From Variovorax fucosicus (GTDB lineage: Bacteria; Pseudomonadota; Gammaproteobacteria; Burkholderiales; Burkholderiaceae_C), in NCBI RefSeq assembly GCF_030316825.1, contig NZ_JASZYU010000001.1, positions 930,001 to 994,000 on the forward strand: a stretch of DNA of 64,000 nt. Direction: 5' to 3'. The position numbers and the translations under genes are program-made. The notes below the pieces were generated by a model that worked only from the letters and a program-made list of their open reading frames with translations, was not told the DNA's origin and did not search any database. This document shows positions 49,936 to 59,777 of this stretch, in pieces; positions within the stretch are counted from its first letter, which is position 1, and every line of letters begins with the position of its first letter.

Positions 49936-51039
49936 ATGCGCGCAAGTGGGTCGCAAGGCGACCACGACAAGTTTCTGGAGACACGGAGTTTCGCAGCCCT
50001 GGACGGCTTGCGTGCCGTTTCCGTTTTTCTCGTCTTCACCTTTCATTTCGGTGGACCGGCCTGGGCCAAGCTCTCCGGCTGGCTGGGTGTCTACGCCTTT
50101 TTTGTTCTCTCCGGCTTTCTGATCACCACGCTGCTGCTGCGCGAACACGATGCCACCGGCGGCGTGTCGCTGAAGGCGTTCTACATCCGCCGCAGTACGC
50201 GGATCCTGCCGCTCTACTTGCTCGTCTACCTTGTTGTGCTGGCCCAGAGCTGGTTTGCGCAGGGCGAACCGTGGGCGCAGATGAAGGCGGCAACGCCGTA
50301 CTACCTCACTTTCCTGAACGAGTTCGCCGACCTTGCGCCGCTCCACATGACGTGGACGCTGGGCGTGGAATGGAAGTACTACCTGGTGTGGCCGCTGCTG
50401 TTCGCGCTGCTCGGCACCACGGTCGCGTCACGCTTCGCCACGGCCCTTGGCTGCGTGATGGTGCTGGTGGCGATCTGGCTCAGCCACATCCCGCCGGCCT
50501 GGTTCTCGCCCTGGCATTACCTGGGCATGCTGATCGGCTCGCTGGTGGCCATCGCGATGCACACGCGCAGCACCTTTCGCTGGGCGCGCGCACTGATGCG
50601 CGATGGGGTGGCCCTCGCCATCGCGCTGGCGCTGTTCGTGATGCACCGCAAGTCGGTCGTCATCGCCAAGCACCTCGGCGAGCCGCAGATGATTGCCCTC
50701 TACACCGTGCTGGTGGGGCTGTTGCTGCCATCGCTGGTGGCGCGCACCGGCATCGGCCGGGTGTTGTCCCGGCAGTTCCTCGTTTTCATCGGGCAACGGT
50801 CGTACGCGATGTACCTGGTTCAGTACCTGGCAGCCCAGGCCCTCATTGCCGTGCTGCCCGGCACGGTGGCGGGGCCGCTGCTGCTCGGCGGCGCGTTCGT
50901 GCTGGCGCTGGCCGTGTCGGATGTTCTCTTCCGCGGGTTCGAGAAGCCGTTGACGCAATGGGGTCACCGGTGGGCGAAGGCGGCCAGGCAGCAACCCACG
51001 CTGGAGCCAGGCAACTCGCGCTTTCGGCCGCTTTCCTAG
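49936..51039 (+). CDS. Acyltransferase 3 family membrane protein (OafA/YrhL-like)
   Basis: A 367-residue polytopic enzyme with around ten membrane segments. The family motif LDGLRAVSVFLVFTFHF holds the essential Arg and His, and FFVLSGFLITTLLL and RRSTRILPLYLL follow. These enzymes O-acetylate cell-surface polysaccharides or lipids, substrate unknown here. The ATG at 49936 has GAGG eleven bases before it. Its stop codon and that of the convergent DUF1854 gene share the palindrome CTAG. Confidence 0.88.
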   Translation: MRASGSQGDHDKFLETRSFAALDGLRAVSVFLVFTFHFGGPAWAKLSGWLGVYAFFVLSGFLITTLLLREHDATGGVSLKAFYIRRSTRILPLYLLVYLVVLAQSWFAQGEPWAQMKAATPYYLTFLNEFADLAPLHMTWTLGVEWKYYLVWPLLFALLGTTVASRFATALGCVMVLVAIWLSHIPPAWFSPWHYLGMLIGSLVAIAMHTRSTFRWARALMRDGVALAIALALFVMHRKSVVIAKHLGEPQMIALYTVLVGLLLPSLVARTGIGRVLSRQFLVFIGQRSYAMYLVQYLAAQALIAVLPGTVAGPLLLGGAFVLALAVSDVLFRGFEKPLTQWGHRWAKAARQQPTLEPGNSRFRPLS

Positions 51040-51506
51040 AGAAAGCGCTCCAGCAACCTGCGCGAGCCGCGGTCCAGCGCCTTGACATCGGGAATGCGGA
51101 ACTGCACGCCATGTGCGCTGCCGATCAGCAGCGCGCCGCCTTCCAGCCGGCGGATATCTTCCTCGGCCTTCAGCACGAATTCGGTCTCGCCGCGATCGGT
51201 GCTCACATGCCAGGTGCTCGGCACGCCAAAGCTCGACACGCGGTGCAGCTTCTGGAGGATCGGTGCGAAGTCGCGCGCCGCCAGGTCGGCATCGAGGGTG
51301 GCGCGCATGGCCGCCGGCAACTGGTCGATGCGGTCGATCCAGACCTGCTCACGCCCGTCGCTGCCGACCAGCGAAAGCCCCTGATCCGGCGCCGTCAGGG
51401 GAAACGCGCGAACCGGCACGATGCCCACATGGCGCTCGCCTTCGGCGTCGATCAGCACCAGCCGTCCGAAGTCGTCGCGCTCGAGTTGAAAGTTCGTCGT
51501 CATCAT
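51036..51506 (-). CDS. DUF1854 protein associated with cyanophycin metabolism
   Basis: A 156-residue soluble protein of the DUF1854 family, which is found next to cyanophycin genes and ABC transporters in betaproteobacteria. Blocks FQLERDDFGRLVLIDAEGE, HRVSSFGVPSTWHVSTDRG and RRLEGGALLI are visible. Its start overlaps the ABC gene stop by four bases. Its function is unknown. Linkage suggests that it serves the transporter or the cyanophycin granule. Confidence 0.85.
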   Translation of the reverse strand: MMTTNFQLERDDFGRLVLIDAEGERHVGIVPVRAFPLTAPDQGLSLVGSDGREQVWIDRIDQLPAAMRATLDADLAARDFAPILQKLHRVSSFGVPSTWHVSTDRGETEFVLKAEEDIRRLEGGALLIGSAHGVQFRIPDVKALDRGSRRLLERFL

Positions 51507-53782
51507 GCTTCCCCCGCCGGATGCGCCGCATGGGTGTGCAGCACGGCCGCGACCGCGCTGCGCTCGGCGGCTGCCGCGTCGGCGTCTTCCTCGTCGGCCT
51601 GCCGCAGCTGGGCCTGGTAGAGCCGCCAGTAGGCGCCCTGCTTCTCCATGAGTGCGTCGTGCGGCCCGACCTCGACCACCTCGCCGCGGTCCATCACCAC
51701 GAGACGGTCCGCCTTGCGCAGCGTCGACAGGCGGTGCGCGATCGCGATCGTGGTGCGGCCCTTCACCAGGTTGTCGAGCGCCTTCTGGATTTCTTTCTCG
51801 GTCTCGGTGTCGACCGCCGAGGTGGCCTCGTCGAGGATCAGGATGCGCGGGTCGATCAGCAGCGCCCTTGCGATGCTGATGCGCTGGCGCTCCCCGCCCG
51901 AAAGACCCTGGCCGCGTTCGCCCACCAGCGAGTCGTAGCCGTGCGGGAGGCGCAGGATGAAGTCGTGTGCATGGGCCGCGCGGGCCGCCGCAACGATCTC
52001 CTCGCGCGTCGCTTCGGGCTTGCCGTAGGCGATGTTCTGCGCGATGGTGCCGAAGAACAAAAAGGGCTCCTGCAGCACCAGGCCGACATGGCGCCGGTAA
52101 TCGGCCACGGCGAAGCGGCGAATGTCGGTGCCGTCGACCTTGATGGCGCCGTCGGTCACGTCGTAGAAGCGGCAGATCAGGTTGACCAGGGTGCTCTTGC
52201 CCGAGCCGCTGTGGCCGACCAGGCCGATCATCTCGCCGGGGCGGATCGTCAGGTCGAGGTCCCGGATCACGGCGCGCGAGCCGTAGCGAAAGCCCAGGCC
52301 CTTCATCTCGATCTGCCCCTGCAACTGCTCGACCTTGACCGGATTCGCCGGCTCCGGCACGTTGCTCACGTGGTCGAGGATGTCGAAGATGCGCTTGGCG
52401 CCGGCGGCGGCCTTCTGCGTGACCGAGACGATGCGGCTCATCGAATCCAGGCGCGTGTAGAAGCGCCCGATGTAGGCGATGAAGGCCGTCAGCACCCCGA
52501 CCGTGATGCGCCCGCGCGCCACCTGCCAGATGCCGAAGCCCCAGACCACGAGCAAGCCGATCTCGGTGAGCAGCGACACGCTCGGCGTGAACAGCGACCA
52601 GGTCTTGTTGAGCTTGTCGTTGACCTGGAGGTTGTATTTGTTGGCTTCGCGGAAGCGGTCGGCCTCGCGCTTTTCCTGCGCAAAGGCCTTCACCACGCGG
52701 ATGCCCGGAATGGTGTCGGCCAGCACGTTGGTGACCTCGCTCCAGACGCGGTCGATCTTCTCGAAGCCGGTGCGCAGCCGGTCGCGCACGACATGGATCA
52801 TCCAGGCGATGAAAGGCAGCGGCACCAGGGTGACCACCGCCAGCAGCGGGTTGATCGACACCAGGATCACCGCGGTCATCGCGATCATCAGCACGTCGGT
52901 GAGGAAGTCGAGCGCGTGCAGCGACAGGAACACGTTGATGCGGTCGGTTTCGGAGCCGATGCGCGCCATCAGGTCGCCGGTTCGCTTGCCGCCGAAATAG
53001 TCGAGCGGCAGCGTCAGCAAGTGCTCGTAGGTGGTGGTGCGCAGATCGGCGCCGATGCGCTCGGACACCAGCGCCAGCAGGTAGGTGCGGGCCCAGCCGA
53101 GCGCCCAGCCGGCCAGCGCCGACGCCAGCAGCGCCGTGAGGAACATCGCGACCTTGCCGACCGCAATCTGCTGCCCGTTCTGGAACGGGATCAGGATGTC
53201 GTCCATCAGCGGGATGGTCAGATAAGGCGGCACCAGCGTCGCCGCGGTCGACGCCAGCGTCAGCAGGAAGCCGGCAATCAGTTGCTTGCGGTAGGGTCGG
53301 GCGAAACGGCCCAGACGCAGCAGCACCCAGGTCGACGGCGGGGTTTGCGCTTCGGTTTCACCAGCCGCGATGTCTTCGCGCTCGGCCGCGTCGGCCGCGT
53401 CGGCTGTCACCTGCGCGACGCTGGCCGAGCGCTGCTCGAACAGCTTGAGCAGCCGCAACGCCGCCGTCTGGTGCACCAAGGTGTAACGCCAGCGCGCCAG
53501 AAGACCCTGCGCACCGGTCAGATCGAGGGTCCCGACGCCCGCGTGGTCGTGCAAATGCAGCGCCAGCCCGGATTCGGCGAGCGGCCAGTCGTGCCACCCA
53601 CCGGCGGTGTCGCGCGCGATCAGGCGGGTTTCGGTCAGCGCCAGCAAACCGTCTGCAAACAGAAGTTCGGCGTCGAGGTCAACCGCGAGCGTGGCCAGAA
53701 CGTTTTCCGCGACTGTGAGCCGGCTTTTCAGAGCCGCCCCTGCTTCGCCCTCCGGGGTGCCGACTGGATCGTGATGTTGCAT
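51503..53782 (-). CDS. Cyanophycin-associated ABC exporter (fused membrane and ATPase)
   Basis: A 759-residue half exporter. An extra N-terminal soluble region of about 150 residues (RLTVAENVLATLAVDLDAELLF) precedes the six-segment membrane domain. The ATPase has Walker A GHSGSGKST, signature LSGGERQR and Walker B ILILDEATSAVD. I choose ATG 53782; one 13 codons upstream is possible. It is divergent from the synthetases with 67 bases between starts. Such transporters are conserved beside cphA in betaproteobacteria. The cargo is unknown; arginine, aspartate or cyanophycin dipeptides are candidates by context. Confidence 0.88.
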   Translation of the reverse strand: MQHHDPVGTPEGEAGAALKSRLTVAENVLATLAVDLDAELLFADGLLALTETRLIARDTAGGWHDWPLAESGLALHLHDHAGVGTLDLTGAQGLLARWRYTLVHQTAALRLLKLFEQRSASVAQVTADAADAAEREDIAAGETEAQTPPSTWVLLRLGRFARPYRKQLIAGFLLTLASTAATLVPPYLTIPLMDDILIPFQNGQQIAVGKVAMFLTALLASALAGWALGWARTYLLALVSERIGADLRTTTYEHLLTLPLDYFGGKRTGDLMARIGSETDRINVFLSLHALDFLTDVLMIAMTAVILVSINPLLAVVTLVPLPFIAWMIHVVRDRLRTGFEKIDRVWSEVTNVLADTIPGIRVVKAFAQEKREADRFREANKYNLQVNDKLNKTWSLFTPSVSLLTEIGLLVVWGFGIWQVARGRITVGVLTAFIAYIGRFYTRLDSMSRIVSVTQKAAAGAKRIFDILDHVSNVPEPANPVKVEQLQGQIEMKGLGFRYGSRAVIRDLDLTIRPGEMIGLVGHSGSGKSTLVNLICRFYDVTDGAIKVDGTDIRRFAVADYRRHVGLVLQEPFLFFGTIAQNIAYGKPEATREEIVAAARAAHAHDFILRLPHGYDSLVGERGQGLSGGERQRISIARALLIDPRILILDEATSAVDTETEKEIQKALDNLVKGRTTIAIAHRLSTLRKADRLVVMDRGEVVEVGPHDALMEKQGAYWRLYQAQLRQADEEDADAAAAERSAVAAVLHTHAAHPAGEA

Positions 53783-53849
53783 TGTGTTTCTGTGTCTCTG
53801 GCCCACTGCAGGCCCCCTCATGGCACCCGACGGGCGCCGATTCTGACCG

Positions 53850-56150
53850 ATGACAATGGACGTGCTTGAGAGCGCGTCCGTGCTCGGTCAAAGCACATCG
53901 AACGTTTCCATGACCCATTTCGACGACATCCAGCTGCTGCGCACCCACTATTTGCGTGGCCCGAACCTCTGGACCTACCGCCCCGTGCTCGAAGTCTGGC
54001 TCGATCTGGGCCGCCTCGAGGACTTCCCTTCCAACCTGATTCCGGGCTTCACAGACCGCCTGACCACGCTGCTGCCGGCGCTGATCGAGCATCACTGCGG
54101 CGTCGGTGAGCGCGGCGGCTTCATCCAGCGCCTGAATGAGGGCACCTGGGCCGGCCATGTGCTCGAGCACGTGGTGATCGAGCTGCTCAACCTGGCCAGC
54201 ATGCCGACCGGCTTCGGCCAGACCCGCAGTACCTCGCGGCATGGCGTCTACCGCATGGTGTTCCGCGCGCGCGACGAGCAGGTTGCCCGCGCGGCGCTGA
54301 CCGAAGGCCACCGCCTGCTGATGGCCGCCATCAACAACGACCCGTTCGATGCCGCCGAAGTGCAGCGCGCGGTCGACGCAGTCAAGGCCAAGGTCGAAGA
54401 CTGCTACCTCGGGCCCAGCACCGCCTGCATCGTCAGCGCGGCCACCGATCGCGGCATTCCGCACATGCGGCTGAACAACGGCAACCTGGTGCAACTGGGC
54501 TACGGCGCCAACCAGCAGCGCATCTGGACGGCCGAGACCGACTACACCAGCGCCATCGGCGAATCGATCGCGAGCGACAAGGAGCTCACCAAGTCGCTGC
54601 TCGCCAGCTGCGGCGTGCCGGTGCCCGAAGGCCAGGTCGTGGCCACGGCCGCGGAAGCCTGGGAAGCGGCCGAAGACATCGGCCTGCCGGTGGTCGTGAA
54701 GCCGTCCGACGCCAACCATGGCCGCGGCGTCTCGCTCGAGCTGCATACGCGCGAAGAGGTCGAGGCCGCCTTCGCAGTGGCCGAGCCCGAAGGCAGCGAC
54801 GTGATGGTCGAGCGCTTCATCCGCGGCTCCGAGCACAGGCTGCTGGTGGTCGGCGGCCAGGTGGTTGCGGCCGCGCGCGGCGAGATCATCACCGTCACCG
54901 GCGACGGCAAGGCCACCGTGAGCGCGCTGATCGACAGCCAGCTCAACAGCGACCCGCGCCGCGGCGTCGAAGAGGAATTTCCGCTCGATTTCATCGATGC
55001 CGCGACCGACGCCAAGCTGCAGCTCGAGCTGCAGCGCCAGAAACTCGACGCTGCAGCCGTACCGGAGGCGGGCCGCGTCGTCACGATCCAGCGCAACGGC
55101 AACCTCGGCGTCGACTGCACCGACCAGGTCCATCCCGAAGTCGCGCATGCGGCGACGCTGGCCGCCCGGGTCGTGGGACTCGACATCGCCGGCATCGACC
55201 TGGTTGCCCAGGACATCTCCCGGCCGCTCGCCGCGCAGGGCGCCGCGATCGTCGAAGTCAACGCCGGCCCCGGCCTGCTGATGCACCTGAAGCCGGCGGT
55301 CGGTTCGCCGCGCCCGGTGGGCCGTGCGATCTGCGACCACCTGTTTCCGGACGACGCTCCGGGCCGCATTCCGGTGGTCGGCGTGGCCGGCTCGCAGGAC
55401 ACGGCCGTGCTGGCGCGGCTGGTCGCCTGGCTCCTCAATCTGGGCGGCCGCCATACCGGCCTGGCCTGCCGCGACGGCCTGTTCCTCGAACGCCGCCGCG
55501 TCGACGCGCGCAGCAGCGCCAACTGGGAAGCCGGCCACCGCCTGCTGGTGAACCGCGCGGTGCAGGCGGTGGTGATCGAGAACGGCGCCGAAACCATCCT
55601 GCGCGACGGCCTGGCCTACGACCGCTGCGAAGTCGGCATCGTGACCGACCTCGAAGGCGCAGGCGCGCTGGCCGAATACGACATCACCGAGAGCGACCAG
55701 CTGGTGAAGGTGCTGCGCACCCAGGTCGACGTGGTGCTGCCCGAAGGCACGGCCGTGCTCAACGCGGCCGACCCGCGCGTGGCCGGCCTGGCGCCGCTGT
55801 GCGACGGCGCCGTGATCCTCTACGCGTCCGACGCGACTGCGCCAGCGCTGGAGCCCCATCAAGCCGCCGGCGGCAAGGCCGTGCTGGTGCGGCAAGACCG
55901 CGTGGTGCTGGCCAATGGCAGCAGCGAATCGTTCCTGCCCGGCCTGGGCCGACTCACGGTCTGGCGCGCCAACCATGCGGGCGTGAGCATCGACAGCCTG
56001 CTGGCCGCCGTGGCCGCCGCCTGGGCGCTCGGCATCCCGCTCAACCTGATCGGCGCTGGCGTCGAAGCCTTCGAATCCGACCTGCACGCCGCGCTCGCGT
56101 CGCTGCAGCTGTCGCAAACCATTCCCTCGCCGGACAAACAACTCGCCTGA
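53850..56150 (+). CDS. Cyanophycin synthetase-like protein with degenerate ligase P-loop (CphA'/CphA2-like)
   Basis: A 766-residue CphA homologue. The N-domain begins FDDIQLLRTHYLRGPNLW, the ATP-grasp domain (about 235-450) is intact with VVVKPSDANHGRGV and VEVNAGPGLL, but the Mur-ligase P-loop reads VAGSQDTAVLARL near residues 511-524 instead of GTNGKTT, so the lysine and threonines for ATP are gone, and the ligase region is about 90 residues shorter than in the next gene. It may add only one amino acid, polymerise dipeptides as reported for cyanobacterial CphA2, or regulate CphA. Start ATGs at 53850, 53856 and 53910 are possible. Confidence 0.9.
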   Translation: MTMDVLESASVLGQSTSNVSMTHFDDIQLLRTHYLRGPNLWTYRPVLEVWLDLGRLEDFPSNLIPGFTDRLTTLLPALIEHHCGVGERGGFIQRLNEGTWAGHVLEHVVIELLNLASMPTGFGQTRSTSRHGVYRMVFRARDEQVARAALTEGHRLLMAAINNDPFDAAEVQRAVDAVKAKVEDCYLGPSTACIVSAATDRGIPHMRLNNGNLVQLGYGANQQRIWTAETDYTSAIGESIASDKELTKSLLASCGVPVPEGQVVATAAEAWEAAEDIGLPVVVKPSDANHGRGVSLELHTREEVEAAFAVAEPEGSDVMVERFIRGSEHRLLVVGGQVVAAARGEIITVTGDGKATVSALIDSQLNSDPRRGVEEEFPLDFIDAATDAKLQLELQRQKLDAAAVPEAGRVVTIQRNGNLGVDCTDQVHPEVAHAATLAARVVGLDIAGIDLVAQDISRPLAAQGAAIVEVNAGPGLLMHLKPAVGSPRPVGRAICDHLFPDDAPGRIPVVGVAGSQDTAVLARLVAWLLNLGGRHTGLACRDGLFLERRRVDARSSANWEAGHRLLVNRAVQAVVIENGAETILRDGLAYDRCEVGIVTDLEGAGALAEYDITESDQLVKVLRTQVDVVLPEGTAVLNAADPRVAGLAPLCDGAVILYASDATAPALEPHQAAGGKAVLVRQDRVVLANGSSESFLPGLGRLTVWRANHAGVSIDSLLAAVAAAWALGIPLNLIGAGVEAFESDLHAALASLQLSQTIPSPDKQLA

Positions 56151-56153
56151 TCC

Positions 56154-58721
56154 ATGGAAGTCACCCGCATCCGCGCCCTGCGTGGCCCGAATCTCTGGAG
56201 CCGCCACACGGCCATCGAAGCCATCGTGGCCTGCCGCGGCGACGAAAACGCCGTACCGAAACTGCCCGGCTTCGAAGCGCGGCTGCGCGCGCTGTTCCCG
56301 ATGATCGGCGAACTGCACCCGATCGTGCTGGGCCAGCCGCTGGCGCTCGCCCACGTGCTCGAAAACGCGGCCATGGCGCTGCAGACGCAGGCCGGCTGCC
56401 AGGTGAGCTTCGGCCACACGGCGCCCACCCCCGAAGAAGGCGTCTACCAGGTCACCGTCCAGTACACCGAAGAGGCCGTTGGCCGGCTCGCACTGAAGCA
56501 GGCCGAACAACTGATCGAGGCCGCGCTCAACAACACGGCTTTCGATCCCATCGCCGCCATCACCGAACTGCGCGACCTCGACGAATCGGAGCGCCTGGGC
56601 CCGAGCACGGGCTCGATCGTCGACGCCGGTGTGGCGCGCGGCATCCCCTACCGCCGGCTCACCAGCGGCAGCCTGGTGCAGTTCGGCTGGGGCGCCAAGC
56701 AGCGCCGCATCCAGGCGGCCGAGATCGACAGCACCAGCGGCGTGGCCGAGTCGATCGCGCAGGACAAGGAACTCACCAAGCAGTTGCTGAATGCCGCCGG
56801 CGTGCCGGTACCGCTGGGCCGGCCGGTGGCCGACGCCGACGACGGCTGGGCCGCCGCACTGGAGATTGGTCTGCCCGTGGTGGTGAAGCCGCAGGACGGC
56901 AACCAGGGCAAGGGCGTCACCGTCAACATCACGACGCGGGAGCAATTGACTGCGGCCTGCGAGTCCGCCGCCCGGTACGGCGAAGTGATGGTCGAGAAGT
57001 TCTTGCCAGGCTTCGACTTCCGCCTGCTGGTGGTTGGCGACAAGCTCGTCGCGGCGGCGCGACGCGATCCGCCACAGGTGATCGGCGACGGCCGCAGCAC
57101 GGTGCGCCAGCTGGTCGAAACGGTAAACCTCGACCCGCGCCGCGGCGAAGGCCATGCCACCTCGCTCACCAAGATCCGGCTCGACGACATCGCGATCGGC
57201 CGGCTCGAGGCCCAGGGCCTGACCCCTGACAGCGTGCCCACGCGCGGCCAGCGCGTGGTGCTGCGCAACAACGCGAACCTCTCGACCGGCGGCAGCGCCA
57301 CCGACGTGACCGACACCGTGCACCCCGAGATCGCGGCGCGCGCGGTCGACGCGGCGCAGATGGTCGGCCTGCACATCTGCGGTGTCGACATGGTGTGCGA
57401 GAACGTGCTGCGCCCACTCGAAGAGCAGCATGGCGGCGTGGTCGAGGTCAACGCGGCGCCCGGGCTGCGCATGCACATTTCGCCCTCGTTCGGACGCGGC
57501 CGTGCGGTCGGCGAGGCCGTGATCGACACCCTGTTCGCGGCCGGCGACGACGGCCGCATCCCGGTGGTCGCCGTGACCGGCACCAACGGCAAGACCACCA
57601 CGGCGCGGCTCATCAACCATCTGCTCGCCTCGAGCGGCCTGCGCACCGGCATGACCAACACCGATGGCGTGTGGGTCGATGGCCGCCAGACCGACAGCGG
57701 CGACTGCAGCGGCCCCAAGAGCGCGCGCAACGTGCTGATGCATCCCGATGTGGATGCGGCCGTGTTCGAAGTGGCGCGCGGCGGGGTGCTGCGCGAAGGG
57801 TTGGGCTTCGACCGCTGCCAGGTGGCGGTGGTCACCAATGTGGGCAGCGGCGACCATCTCGGCCTGAACTACATCACGACGGTGGAAGACCTGGCCGTGC
57901 TCAAGCGCGTGATCGTGCGCAACGTGGCCAGCGACGGCTACGCGGCGCTCAACGCCGCCGACCCGAACGTGGCCGCGATGGCGACCGGCTGCCCCGGCAG
58001 CGTGATCTTCTTCGCCGCCGATCGCCAGCATCCGGTGATGGCCACGCACCGCGCCCAGGGCAAGCGCACGGTGTACGTCGACAACGACGTGCTGGTGGCG
58101 GCCGAAGGCTCGTGGCGCGAGCGCGTGCCGCTGCGCGACGTGCCGATCACGCGCAATGGCACGCTGCCGTTCCAGGTCGAGAACGTGATGGCGGCGGTGG
58201 CCGCGGGCTGGGCCGTGGGCCTCGACTGGGACACCATTCGCAGCGGCCTGTCGAGTTTCATGAACGATCCGGCCGGCGTGCCCGGCCGCTTCAACGTGAT
58301 GGAGTTCCGTGGCGCGACCGTGATCGCCGATTACGGCCACAACACCGACGCCATGAAGGCACTGGTCGCCGCCGTGGACACCATGCCGGCGAACAAGCGC
58401 TCGGTGGTGATCAGCGGCGCCGGCGACCGGCGCGACTGCGACATCCGCGACCAGACCGCGATCCTCGGCGAAGCCTTCGACGACGTGATCCTCTACCAGG
58501 ACGCGGCCCAGCGCGGCCGCGCCGACGGCGAGGTGATGGCGTTGCTGCGCCAGGGCCTGCAGGGCGCGCGCCGCACGCAGCAGATCGACGAGATCCGCGG
58601 CGAATTCATCGCGATCGACGCCGCCCTCGAGCGGCTGCAACCGGGCGACCTGTCGCTGATCCTCGTGGATCAGGTCGAAGAAGCCCTGGCGCACCTGGCC
58701 AAACGCATCGCGGCTGGCTGA
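56154..58721 (+). CDS. cphA: Cyanophycin synthetase
   Basis: The 855-residue enzyme makes cyanophycin, poly-aspartate with arginine side chains, without ribosomes. The N-domain opens RIRALRGPNLWSR. The ATP-grasp domain (about 220-460) has VVVKPQDGNQGKGV and VEVNAAPGLRMH. The Mur-ligase domain has the P-loop VTGTNGKTT near 474-482 and ADYGHNTDAM. Both active sites look intact. It starts 3 bases after the CphA'-like gene, so the pair is one transcript. Confidence 0.95.
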   Translation: MEVTRIRALRGPNLWSRHTAIEAIVACRGDENAVPKLPGFEARLRALFPMIGELHPIVLGQPLALAHVLENAAMALQTQAGCQVSFGHTAPTPEEGVYQVTVQYTEEAVGRLALKQAEQLIEAALNNTAFDPIAAITELRDLDESERLGPSTGSIVDAGVARGIPYRRLTSGSLVQFGWGAKQRRIQAAEIDSTSGVAESIAQDKELTKQLLNAAGVPVPLGRPVADADDGWAAALEIGLPVVVKPQDGNQGKGVTVNITTREQLTAACESAARYGEVMVEKFLPGFDFRLLVVGDKLVAAARRDPPQVIGDGRSTVRQLVETVNLDPRRGEGHATSLTKIRLDDIAIGRLEAQGLTPDSVPTRGQRVVLRNNANLSTGGSATDVTDTVHPEIAARAVDAAQMVGLHICGVDMVCENVLRPLEEQHGGVVEVNAAPGLRMHISPSFGRGRAVGEAVIDTLFAAGDDGRIPVVAVTGTNGKTTTARLINHLLASSGLRTGMTNTDGVWVDGRQTDSGDCSGPKSARNVLMHPDVDAAVFEVARGGVLREGLGFDRCQVAVVTNVGSGDHLGLNYITTVEDLAVLKRVIVRNVASDGYAALNAADPNVAAMATGCPGSVIFFAADRQHPVMATHRAQGKRTVYVDNDVLVAAEGSWRERVPLRDVPITRNGTLPFQVENVMAAVAAGWAVGLDWDTIRSGLSSFMNDPAGVPGRFNVMEFRGATVIADYGHNTDAMKALVAAVDTMPANKRSVVISGAGDRRDCDIRDQTAILGEAFDDVILYQDAAQRGRADGEVMALLRQGLQGARRTQQIDEIRGEFIAIDAALERLQPGDLSLILVDQVEEALAHLAKRIAAG

Positions 58722-58794: not shown

Positions 58795-58966
58795 AGATCA
58801 AGCGCAACCGGAAACTTGGAGGCGGCGCTGTCCGACATCGATCCCCGCGTCAGGAGGGCCGATGACGCCCGGCCGTCCCACAGCCGCTGCCGCCGTCGGG
58901 GGCCATATTGGTGATCCAGCGGGCCAATGCCCGCTTCGCTTTCATCCATATGAAGAGGAAACGCCC

Positions 58967-59368
58967 ATGAAAACAACTCGAACATTTGCGTCGGCCGCGC
59001 TGACGGCGCTGGCTTGCCTGTCCTTCTCCGCCGGCGCACAGACCAGTGCGCCGCCGGGATCGGCCGCCCGCATGCAAAGCGAGCGCGCGACCTGCGACGG
59101 GGTGCTGCAGGACAAGGCGGCCTGCCTGCGCGAAGCGGGTGCGGCGCGTCAGGAAGCCGGCCGTAGCGGCCTGACCAGCGCCGGCCCGGGCGGCAACGAA
59201 TCGAACGCGATGGCGCGCTGCCAATTGCAGCCGCCGGCCGATCGTGCCGACTGCGAGGCGCGCCTGCGGGGTGCTCCCGGCAGCACCACGACGACCAGTG
59301 GCAGCGTCATGGGCGGCGGCGTGATCCGCGAAACCGTGACGCCGCTGCCGGCCACGCCCGCGCGTTGA
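58967..59368 (+). CDS. Small secreted protein, tandem paralogue 1
   Basis: A 133-residue protein with a signal peptide ending near residue 25 (AGA-Q). The mature part has four conserved cysteines (ATCDGVL, AACLREAGAARQ, ARCQLQP, ADCEARL) and a tail GSVMGGGVIRETVTPLP. GAGGA lies before the ATG. The next gene is a clear paralogue with the same cysteines and tail. Function unknown; I recognise no named domain. Four cysteines suggest two disulfide bonds in the periplasm. Confidence 0.78.
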   Translation: MKTTRTFASAALTALACLSFSAGAQTSAPPGSAARMQSERATCDGVLQDKAACLREAGAARQEAGRSGLTSAGPGGNESNAMARCQLQPPADRADCEARLRGAPGSTTTTSGSVMGGGVIRETVTPLPATPAR

Positions 59369-59399
59369 TGCGATGCCCATCGATCGAAAGGAGCACACC

Positions 59400-59777
59400 A
59401 TGTTCAGATTGACCCATTCGGCCCTCGCCCTTGTGTTGGCAGCGGGTGCCGTCACCACTGCTACCGCGGCCACGCCGCGCGGCGGTTCCGCCACATATCA
59501 ACAGGAACTCGCGGTCTGCGGCCATATCCAGCAGGATCGCGCCGCCTGTATCCGTGAGGCCGGCGCTGCGCGCCAGGCTGCCGCAACAGGCCAGTTGACC
59601 AGCGCGCCGGACTATCGGCAGAACGCGCTGGCCCGCTGCCAGTTGCAACCGGTCAGCGACCGCGGCGCGTGCGAGGCGCGCGTCATGGGCACCGGTGATA
59701 CCGGTATTCAGGGCAGCGTGCTGGGCGGTGGGCTGATCCGCGAAACGGTTACGCCGATTCCTGCGCCGCTGCAATAA
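59400..59777 (+). CDS. Small secreted protein, tandem paralogue 2
   Basis: A 125-residue protein with signal peptide ending near residue 23 (ATA). It shares with the preceding protein AVCGHIQ, AACIREAGAARQ, ARCQLQPVSDRGACEAR and GSVLGGGLIRETVTPIP. AGGAG lies before the ATG. It starts 31 bases after paralogue 1, so the pair arose by tandem duplication and is likely cotranscribed. Function unknown. Confidence 0.78.
   Translation: MFRLTHSALALVLAAGAVTTATAATPRGGSATYQQELAVCGHIQQDRAACIREAGAARQAAATGQLTSAPDYRQNALARCQLQPVSDRGACEARVMGTGDTGIQGSVLGGGLIRETVTPIPAPLQ

What the first reader, a model, noticed from the sequence alone, without database searches (positions are those of the whole stretch)
53850..56150. 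Cyanophycin synthetase paralogue with a dead ligase P-loop next to an intact one
The first synthetase lost GTNGKTT and about 90 residues of its ligase half, but its N-domain and ATP-grasp look intact. It therefore probably cannot add arginine by the Mur-ligase site. It may be a dipeptide-polymerising CphA2-type enzyme, a primer-making factor or a structural partner of CphA. The genes are 3 bases apart, which suggests a complex.
Basis: partly seen in the sequence, partly recalled or inferred. Interest (0 to 1): 0.6.

Follow-up and report, generated by a model that had tools for sequence, protein, structure and literature searches.

The report
Two-gene cyanophycin synthetase with divided sites
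Next to a normal-looking gene for making the nitrogen-storage polymer cyanophycin lies a sister gene whose protein has lost one ligase site but kept the polymer-cutting site that its neighbour has lost, so the two proteins probably work as one machine, one cutting starter pieces and the other growing them.

Summary
The 53850-56150 protein (CphA', probable start 53910) has no ligase P-loop (GSQDTAV for GTNGKTT) and no Mur-ligase C domain. It lost the zinc site of the N domain (Cx19HxxEH), the endo-cyanophycinase that makes primers in CphA1 (PMC9262961). CphA' keeps that site in 91 of 91 sequences; the neighbour has it whole in 0 of 89. CphA' also lost residues that bind aspartate in the ATP-grasp site (R323G, R458L, S396 deleted), which the neighbour keeps. 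The genes are sister clades from one duplication, both under purifying selection, found together in 120 of 147 genomes with a match, usually beside a divergent ABC transporter and DUF1854 gene. Best reading: CphA polymerises Asp and Arg but needs primers; CphA' is the primer-cutting subunit, with a re-tooled ligase of unknown substrate. It is not CphA2 by sequence or fold. The tandem pair is known in print; I found no description of the split of sites in an open-access library. Activity and complex formation are inferred, not shown.

The parts
53910..56150 (+). CphA' (M-dead paralogue); ORF runs from 53850 but the conserved start is probably Met21 at 53910
   Evidence: AlphaFold model mean pLDDT 91.5, residues 1-18 under 50
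54096..54170 (+). Zinc endo-cyanophycinase site of the CphA' N domain: C83 (54096-54098), H103 (54156-54158), E106-H107 (54165-54170); C-x19-H-x2-E-H
   Evidence: alignment to SuCphA1 C59/H79/E82/H83, kept in 91 of 91; role from PMC9262961
54408..55358 (+). CphA' ATP-grasp (G) domain (limits approximate): K284, H290, R330, D450, E469 kept; aspartate-pocket residues replaced (G344 for R323 at 54879-54881, L477 for R458 at 55278-55280, S396 loop deleted)
   Evidence: residue roles from PMC9427784
55389..55406 (+). Dead Mur-ligase P-loop (GSQDTA in place of GTNGKT)
55716..55730 (+). R623 and D627 of the M remnant, equivalent to SuCphA1 S603/E607 that touch polymer at the N site; R and D in 91 of 91 CphA'
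   Evidence: contact stated in PMC9262961
56154..58721 (+). CphA: full-length synthetase, G and M sites largely intact (Q251 in place of H267), N-domain zinc site lost
   Evidence: model mean pLDDT 90.3
56304..56390 (+). Degenerate N-site region of CphA: metal-ligand loop shortened (no C59), H83 replaced by N71 (56364-56366)
57579..57599 (+). Intact Mur-ligase P-loop GTNGKTT of CphA
51503..53821 (-). Cyanophycin metabolism-associated ABC transporter, divergent
   Evidence: NF052233 1362 bits, cut-off 880; in 89 of 90 fetched CphA' loci
51036..51506 (-). DUF1854 protein of the same cassette
   Evidence: NF052234 221 bits, cut-off 150; in 89 of 90 fetched CphA' loci

Best explanation
The two genes encode a cyanophycin synthetase whose three catalytic sites are divided between sister proteins after one tandem duplication. 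CphA (56154-58721) carries the working elongation sites: the ATP-grasp site that adds aspartate and the Mur site that adds arginine. Having lost the N-domain zinc site it should be primer-dependent. CphA' (53910-56150) carries the working N-domain zinc site, cuts cyanophycin chains into short pieces, and feeds them as primers to CphA, free or in a mixed oligomer. Its M domain no longer ligates arginine but stays folded as a wall of the N-site groove. Its ATP-grasp site still has its ATP-binding residues but no longer the aspartate-binding ones, so in most species it probably ligates something else (for example a beta-Asp-Arg dipeptide or fragment); this is secondary, because several lineages lost it while keeping the zinc site. 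Shown here: presence and absence of sites, conservation, phylogeny, selection, gene order. Inferred: catalysis, primer supply, physical contact.
For: Zinc-site residues C59, H79, E82, H83 kept together in 91 of 91 CphA' and 0 of 89 CphA, and in 26 of 27 single CphA1; in 80 named loci, overlapping that set in part, 80 of 80 and 0 of 77. CphA keeps R323, N394, R458 and all ten M residues checked in 89 of 89; CphA' has G at 323 in 88 and L at 458 in 89 of 91. M-remnant residues lining the N-site groove are R603/D607 in 91 of 91 CphA'; position 607 is acidic in 20 of 26 single CphA1 but in 2 of 89 CphA. Eight of 91 CphA' lost H267, one of these with most of its G domain, none the zinc site. Domain identity over 89 pairs: CphA' N 0.65, G 0.66, M 0.49; CphA N 0.60, G 0.74, M 0.73. 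dN/dS in 15 Variovorax-type sequences each: CphA' 0.12, 0.15, 0.17 and CphA 0.23, 0.11, 0.11 for N, G, M. Sister clades. By my count over, 120 of 147 genomes with a match carry both. Precedent: SuCphA1 with dead G and M sites made primer-dependent TmCphA1 primer-independent in trans (PMC9262961).
Against: No activity was measured. CphA has Q in place of catalytic H267 in 87 of 89; H267A is used as an inactivating mutation in SuCphA1, so its G site may be weak; only one single-gene relative with Q was found and it is cut by a contig end (L115). E215, which binds the polymer end, is kept in 1 of 89 CphA and 2 of 91 CphA', though also in only 14 of 26 single CphA1. Three of 89 CphA still have HxxEH, without the cysteine. 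The duplication is one event, so 91 against 89 is conservation, not 90 independent trials; and by PMC9262961 17% of nr70 CphA1 sequences lack the full motif, so N-site loss is not special to this pair. Two CphA' (L088, L092) still have a full M domain, so M loss is not part of the founding state. New residues at G positions are nearly fixed in CphA', which suggests that its G domain does something the primer model does not need. A review reports that no cyanophycin was detected when the R. eutropha H16 homologues were overexpressed (PMC8560796).
Confidence: 0.6

Rival explanations
1. CphA2-like dipeptide polymerase: the G site of CphA' joins beta-Asp-Arg dipeptides, salvaging breakdown products, with the zinc site an accessory.
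For: CphA2 also lacks the Mur P-loop and lid (passage in PMC9427784); the CphA' G domain keeps K220, K261, R309, D431, E450 in 88 to 91 of 91 and has lost three aspartate-binding elements, with nearly fixed replacements.
Against: Sequence and fold nearer CphA1 than CphA2; CphA2 lacks the N motif that CphA' kept in 91 of 91; 8 of 91 CphA' lost H267; 54 of 75 pair-bearing family genomes show no S51 cyanophycinase to make dipeptides at the threshold used. Whether CphA2 has the same changes at 323, 396 and 458 was not tested.
Confidence: 0.18
2. Split synthetase: CphA' adds aspartate (it keeps H267), CphA adds arginine (its G site has Q267); both are needed for every cycle.
For: H267 in 83 of 91 CphA' and Q in 87 of 89 CphA; in the only two pairs where CphA has H267 (L079, L080) CphA' has lost it. 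H267 is reported as critical for the G reaction (PMC9427784).
Against: CphA' lost R323, S396 and R458, and Ala changes of N394, R323 or R458 impair TeCphA1, while CphA keeps R323, N394 and R458 in 89 of 89; in 5 of 89 pairs H267 is R or D in CphA' and Q in CphA, and in a sixth the CphA' G domain is largely gone.
Confidence: 0.09
3. Pseudo-enzyme scaffold: CphA' is a catalytically silent partner that builds a mixed tetramer or regulates CphA.
For: Adjacent gene order in the fetched loci, co-occurrence in 120 genomes, M core predicted to fold well.
Against: A silent scaffold gives no reason for all seven N-site residues checked to be fixed in 91 of 91; the SuCphA1 tetramer residue W672 is not conserved in CphA'.
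Confidence: 0.1
4. Decaying duplicate without function.
For: Loss of P-loop and lid.
Against: dN/dS 0.12 to 0.17 over all three domains in 15 Variovorax-type sequences; an ORF of at least 674 aa in each of 91 CphA'.
Confidence: 0.03

Closest known systems
CphA1 with an active N domain (SuCphA1, PDB 7LG5)
   Same: Same N-G-M architecture, same Cx19HxxEH site in CphA', same M site and most of the G site in CphA; the CphA' model matches SuCphA1 and TeCphA1 chains at TM-score 0.82 to 0.86 and 36% identity.
   Different: There one chain holds all three sites; here the N site is in one protein and the elongation sites in the other.
Primer-dependent CphA1 (T. morbirosei TmCphA1, 7LGN)
   Same: Like CphA it lacks the N motif (PMC9262961).
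   Different: TmCphA1 is treated as a lone enzyme in the parts I read; the N-dead CphA of this clade was always found with an N-active sister (120 genomes).
CphA2 (Gloeothece 7TA5, Stanieria 8FXH)
   Same: No Mur P-loop and no Mur lid.
   Different: CphA2 lacks the N motif and is more distant (20 to 22% identity, TM-score 0.59 to 0.65); CphA' is the sister of CphA by a duplication (no CphA2 sequence was in that tree).
Tandem cphA pairs of Betaproteobacteria in print ('two copies of cphA' with an ABC transporter and no cphB, PMC10687191; 'CphA1, CphA2' of Sideroxydans, PMC5178258)
   Same: By description the same two-gene arrangement.
   Different: The passages I read give no account of which catalytic sites each copy keeps; the CphA2 label in PMC5178258 does not fit the protein studied here.

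Membership tests
CphA1 (TIGR02068 equivalog), for CphA' | Score over the curated cut-off (850 bits) | tested here: not met
   685.6 bits
CphA1 (TIGR02068 equivalog), for CphA' | Working Mur-type site: P-loop, D585/H586, C-terminal lid | tested here: not met
   all three present in only 2 of 91 relatives
CphA1 (TIGR02068 equivalog), for CphA' | Aspartate-binding residues R323, N394, S396, R458 | tested here: not met
   G, N, deleted, L in the window; G at 323 in 88, L at 458 in 89, S396 deleted in 91 of 91; N394 kept in 79
CphA1 (TIGR02068 equivalog), for CphA | Score over cut-off, G and M sites intact | tested here: met
   961.9 bits; ten of ten M residues and nine of eleven listed G residues kept in 89 of 89; the exceptions are H267 (Q in 87) and E215 (E in 1)
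CphA1 (TIGR02068 equivalog), for CphA | Synthesis of cyanophycin from Asp, Arg and ATP | not testable with these tools
   needs assay
N-domain primer-making endo-cyanophycinase (PMC9262961), for CphA' | Cx19HxxEH with supporting H57, R70, E87 | tested here: met
   91 of 91
N-domain primer-making endo-cyanophycinase (PMC9262961), for CphA' | Zinc binding and cutting of (beta-Asp-Arg)n | not testable with these tools
   needs assay
N-domain primer-making endo-cyanophycinase (PMC9262961), for CphA | Cx19HxxEH | tested here: not met
   0 of 89; 3 of 89 keep HxxEH without the cysteine
CphA2 | Loss of Mur P-loop and lid | tested here: met
   feature as stated in PMC9427784
CphA2 | N motif absent | tested here: not met
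   motif present; feature as stated in PMC9262961
CphA2 | Nearest relative by sequence and fold is CphA2 | tested here: not met
   CphA1 461 bits, CphA2 177 bits; CphA1 chains take the ten best fold matches
CphA2 | Same changes at 323, 396, 458 as CphA2 | not tested
   no CphA2 sequence could be obtained
CphA2 | Polymerises beta-Asp-Arg dipeptides | not testable with these tools
   needs assay

The most novel reading that the evidence does not exclude
The four-gene cassette (DUF1854, ABC transporter, CphA', CphA) is not a nitrogen-storage system but a make-and-cut machine for export: CphA makes the polymer, the zinc site of CphA' cuts it to short (beta-Asp-Arg)n pieces, its re-tooled ligase caps or joins pieces, and the ABC transporter sends soluble oligopeptides out, for example into the biofilm. 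Compatible facts: the own genome and 54 of 75 pair-bearing family genomes have no S51 cyanophycinase at the thresholds used; the ABC and DUF1854 genes are in 89 of 90 CphA' loci (the exception is at a contig end) and in 1 of 27 other CphA loci; a cyanophycin synthetase gene of Variovorax paradoxus EPS, which copy is not known, is among the top 25 biofilm-specific genes, 27-fold up (PMC7494200).
Probability: 0.13. Interest if true: 0.85.

Novelty: new variant of a known kind. Interest (0 to 1): 0.6.

Why it matters
It would turn a widespread gene pair now annotated as two copies of one enzyme into a two-subunit machine with divided catalytic sites, and could explain why expression of such genes has yielded no polymer. 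It offers a natural test of the three-site model of cyanophycin synthesis, where a cutting site and two building sites normally share a chain, and a practical clue for heterologous production: express both genes or add primer. It also bears on how cyanophycin is handled in bacteria in which no cyanophycinase is found.

Tried and rejected
CphA2 membership: rejected on sequence, fold and N motif. I tried to bring CphA2 sequences in for a residue check through structure-sequence alignments with four queries (only the five best alignments are printed and these were always CphA1) and looked for a GshF protein to use as another query (0 of 94 genomes at the threshold); both failed, so that comparison is missing.

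Split synthetase (CphA' adds Asp, CphA adds Arg), my own first idea on seeing Q267: disfavoured by loss of the aspartate pocket in CphA', though two pairs fit it (L079, L080).

Pseudogene: rejected. Plasmid spread: tblastn in plasmids gave only matches under 60% identity. DUF1854 in papers: 0 papers. Two small secreted proteins downstream: relatives in 3 of the 117 loci searched, so not part of the cassette.

M-loss count: one change on a quick tree of 89 CphA'; L088/L092 may be a retained ancestral state nested among losses, so the number of losses is not settled.

Rows dropped: L107 from the residue counts of the singles (my extraction lacked its N domain; one search shows that its ORF has no N motif, so I now count 26 of 27); the broken CphA of L042 (two ORFs); L121 has no partner because its contig ends; L080 and L081 CphA' from the tree for long branches; CphA' and CphA were thinned to 34 and 33 in the tree.

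Full report
What is there. Two ORFs, 53850-56150 and 56154-58721 on the + strand, lie 3 bases apart. Both belong to the cyanophycin synthetase family by NCBIfam NF010623; only the second passes the TIGR02068 equivalog cut-off. I call them CphA' and CphA. The divergent neighbours are the 'cyanophycin metabolism-associated' ABC transporter (NF052233) and DUF1854 protein (NF052234). The name CphA' for the short copy is one I recall from work on Ralstonia eutropha; no call gave it. The CphA' start is more likely 53910 than 53850.

In CphA' the Mur P-loop GTNGKTT reads GSQDTAV, D585/H586 (SuCphA1 numbering throughout) are A/G, and Pfam at E 0.001 finds no Mur_ligase_M or Mur_ligase_C. The remaining M core is predicted to fold well (model mean pLDDT 91.5).

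PMC9262961 (I read parts 1 to 3 of 7) shows that the N domain of SuCphA1 holds a zinc endo-cyanophycinase site, Cx19HxxEH, that cuts polymer into primers; TmCphA1, which lacks it, needs primer; SuCphA1 with dead G and M sites supplies primer function to TmCphA1 in trans. CphA' has the full motif (C83, H103, E106, H107). CphA does not: the loop with the cysteine is shortened and H83 is N71, although its N domain is still predicted to fold. So each protein lacks what the other has.

Is it general? I fetched 117 loci from genomes found and aligned the proteins. Counting the window, the four motif residues are kept in 91 of 91 CphA', and 0 of 89 CphA have the motif; 3 of the 89 keep HxxEH but not the cysteine. 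Of 27 single CphA1, 26 have the motif and one, L107, does not; PMC9262961 gives 83% for CphA1 at large. In 80 named loci (Variovorax, Polaromonas, Acidovorax, Rhodoferax, Roseateles and others), some from the same genomes, the motif is in 80 of 80 CphA' and in 0 of 77 CphA; an intact P-loop is in 0 of 80 CphA' and 76 of 77 CphA; 3 loci are too short to show CphA; the ABC gene is seen in 75 of 80. In the family sample 76 of 120 genomes have a match and 75 of these have both proteins. Adding, I count 147 genomes with a match, 120 with both (a few as fragments at contig ends) and 27 with one. Of these 27, 26 were put on the tree and 25 fall outside the pair's clade; the other is L115. The named loci place the window in or near Variovorax (87 to 90% identity; 24 of 25 genomes of the window's genus, itself included, carry the pair, at least in part).

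The G domain. PMC9427784 (section 7 and passages read) assigns K220, K261, D431 and E450 to ATP and Mg, R309 and H267 to the acyl phosphate, N394 and R323 to the beta-carboxylate and R458 to the alpha-carboxylate of aspartate, places aspartate beside S396, and E215 at the polymer end. CphA' keeps K220 (90 of 91), K261 (91), R309 (91), D431 (90), E450 (88), H267 (83) and N394 (79), but R323 is G in 88, R458 is L in 89, and S396 is deleted in 91. CphA keeps R323, N394, R458 and the ATP residues in 89 of 89, with H267 changed to Q in 87. E215 is kept in 1 of 89 CphA and 2 of 91 CphA'. So CphA is the better candidate for aspartate addition, and the CphA' G domain looks re-tooled rather than dead: its replacements are nearly fixed. 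Eight CphA' lost H267 (5 R, 1 D, 1 L, 1 A), and in L081 only 26 of 78 invariant G sites remain, yet all keep the zinc site. On a quick tree of 89 CphA' the H267 state changes 6 times. In the two pairs where CphA has H267, CphA' lacks it (L079, L080), which fits a split-synthetase reading; six other pairs lack it in both.

The M remnant. In the SuCphA1 complex M-domain residues S603 and E607 touch polymer at the N site. These positions are R and D in 91 of 91 CphA'; position 607 is acidic in 20 of 26 single CphA1 and in 2 of 89 CphA. This suggests that the dead M core is kept as part of the N-site groove. The SuCphA1 tetramer residue W672 is not kept in CphA', so the oligomer is open.

History and selection. 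On a G-domain tree of 94 rows CphA' (34 rows) and CphA (33 rows) are each one group (SH-aLRT 95 and 99) and join at 100; L115 sits at the base of CphA with 88. L115 (genome G586) has the ABC and DUF1854 genes beside a CphA with N site, Q267 and intact P-loop, cut by the contig end; it may show a one-gene form of the cassette. Two CphA' (L088, L092) keep P-loop, DHLG and lid but already have G and L at 323 and 458, so the G change probably came before the M loss. dN/dS in 15 Variovorax-type sequences of each gene (105 pairs) is 0.12, 0.15, 0.17 (N, G, M) for CphA' and 0.23, 0.11, 0.11 for CphA: both proteins are maintained, and the most relaxed domain is the N domain of CphA. Identities over 89 pairs agree. 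The duplication is one event, so conservation must not be read as 90 independent trials.

Mechanism. Shown: which sites are present, and their conservation. Inferred from homology: CphA elongates with Asp and Arg; CphA' cuts chains into primers for it. Inferred more weakly: the two associate; the CphA' G domain ligates something other than aspartate. The main weakness is Q267 in CphA: H267A is an inactivating mutation in SuCphA1, and whether Q works is unknown.

Known or new. Paired cphA genes are in print: 'two copies of cphA' with an ABC transporter and no cphB (PMC10687191, section 11 read), 'CphA1, CphA2' in Sideroxydans with the remark that cyanophycinase genes had not been found in Betaproteobacteria (PMC5178258, passages), and two copies without cyanophycinase in Herminiimonas (PMC5670224, passages). 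A review reports no cyanophycin from the R. eutropha H16 homologues (PMC8560796, passages; the original, Adames 2013, was not read). A survey of cyanophycin genes (PMC10206079, abstract and passages) does not mention the pair in what I saw. I found no description of the division of sites in searches, which cover only openly licensed PMC papers and of which I opened eight; Krehenbrink 2002 and other reviews were not read. I therefore call it a new variant of a known kind, with that limit.

Cassette and degradation. ABC and DUF1854 genes flank 89 of 90 fetched CphA' loci (the exception ends at a contig end) and 1 of 27 other loci, L115. The own genome has no match to TIGR02069 at E 0.001 or PF03575 at E 1e-8. 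Crossing, and taking both to have drawn the same 120 genomes as their handles suggest, 21 of 75 pair-bearing genomes have a PF03575 hit, several weak, and 54 have none. How the polymer is mobilised is open, which is why I keep an export reading as the novel case.

Noticed in passing
L098:7782-9464, L119:7781-9550 and 13 other single-CphA loci: A stand-alone Mur-ligase-type ORF of 561 to 668 aa resembling only the M half of cyanophycin synthetase (TIGR02068 368 and 350 bits over the M part in the two scanned) lies next to the CphA1 gene in 15 of 27 single-CphA loci: a second, different way of splitting or doubling the enzyme.
   Followed up: partly
L115 (genome G586): The ABC and DUF1854 cassette with one CphA that has the N site, Q267 and an intact P-loop, cut by the contig end; possibly the form before the duplication.
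   Followed up: partly
58862-59368 and 59373-59777: Two small secreted-looking proteins with similar cysteine patterns in tandem downstream of CphA; relatives in only 3 of 117 fetched loci.
   Followed up: partly
53289-53821 (- strand): The first 177 residues of the ABC transporter ORF match no Pfam family at E 0.1; an extra N-terminal domain of unknown role.
   Followed up: partly
G040 (locus L095): The one matching genome of the family sample with a single CphA has a PF03575 match about 4 kb from it on the same contig, unlike most pair-bearing genomes.
   Followed up: no
L042:3664-7562: The CphA partner is broken into two overlapping ORFs in one genome while CphA' is whole; sequencing error or a true break.
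   Followed up: no
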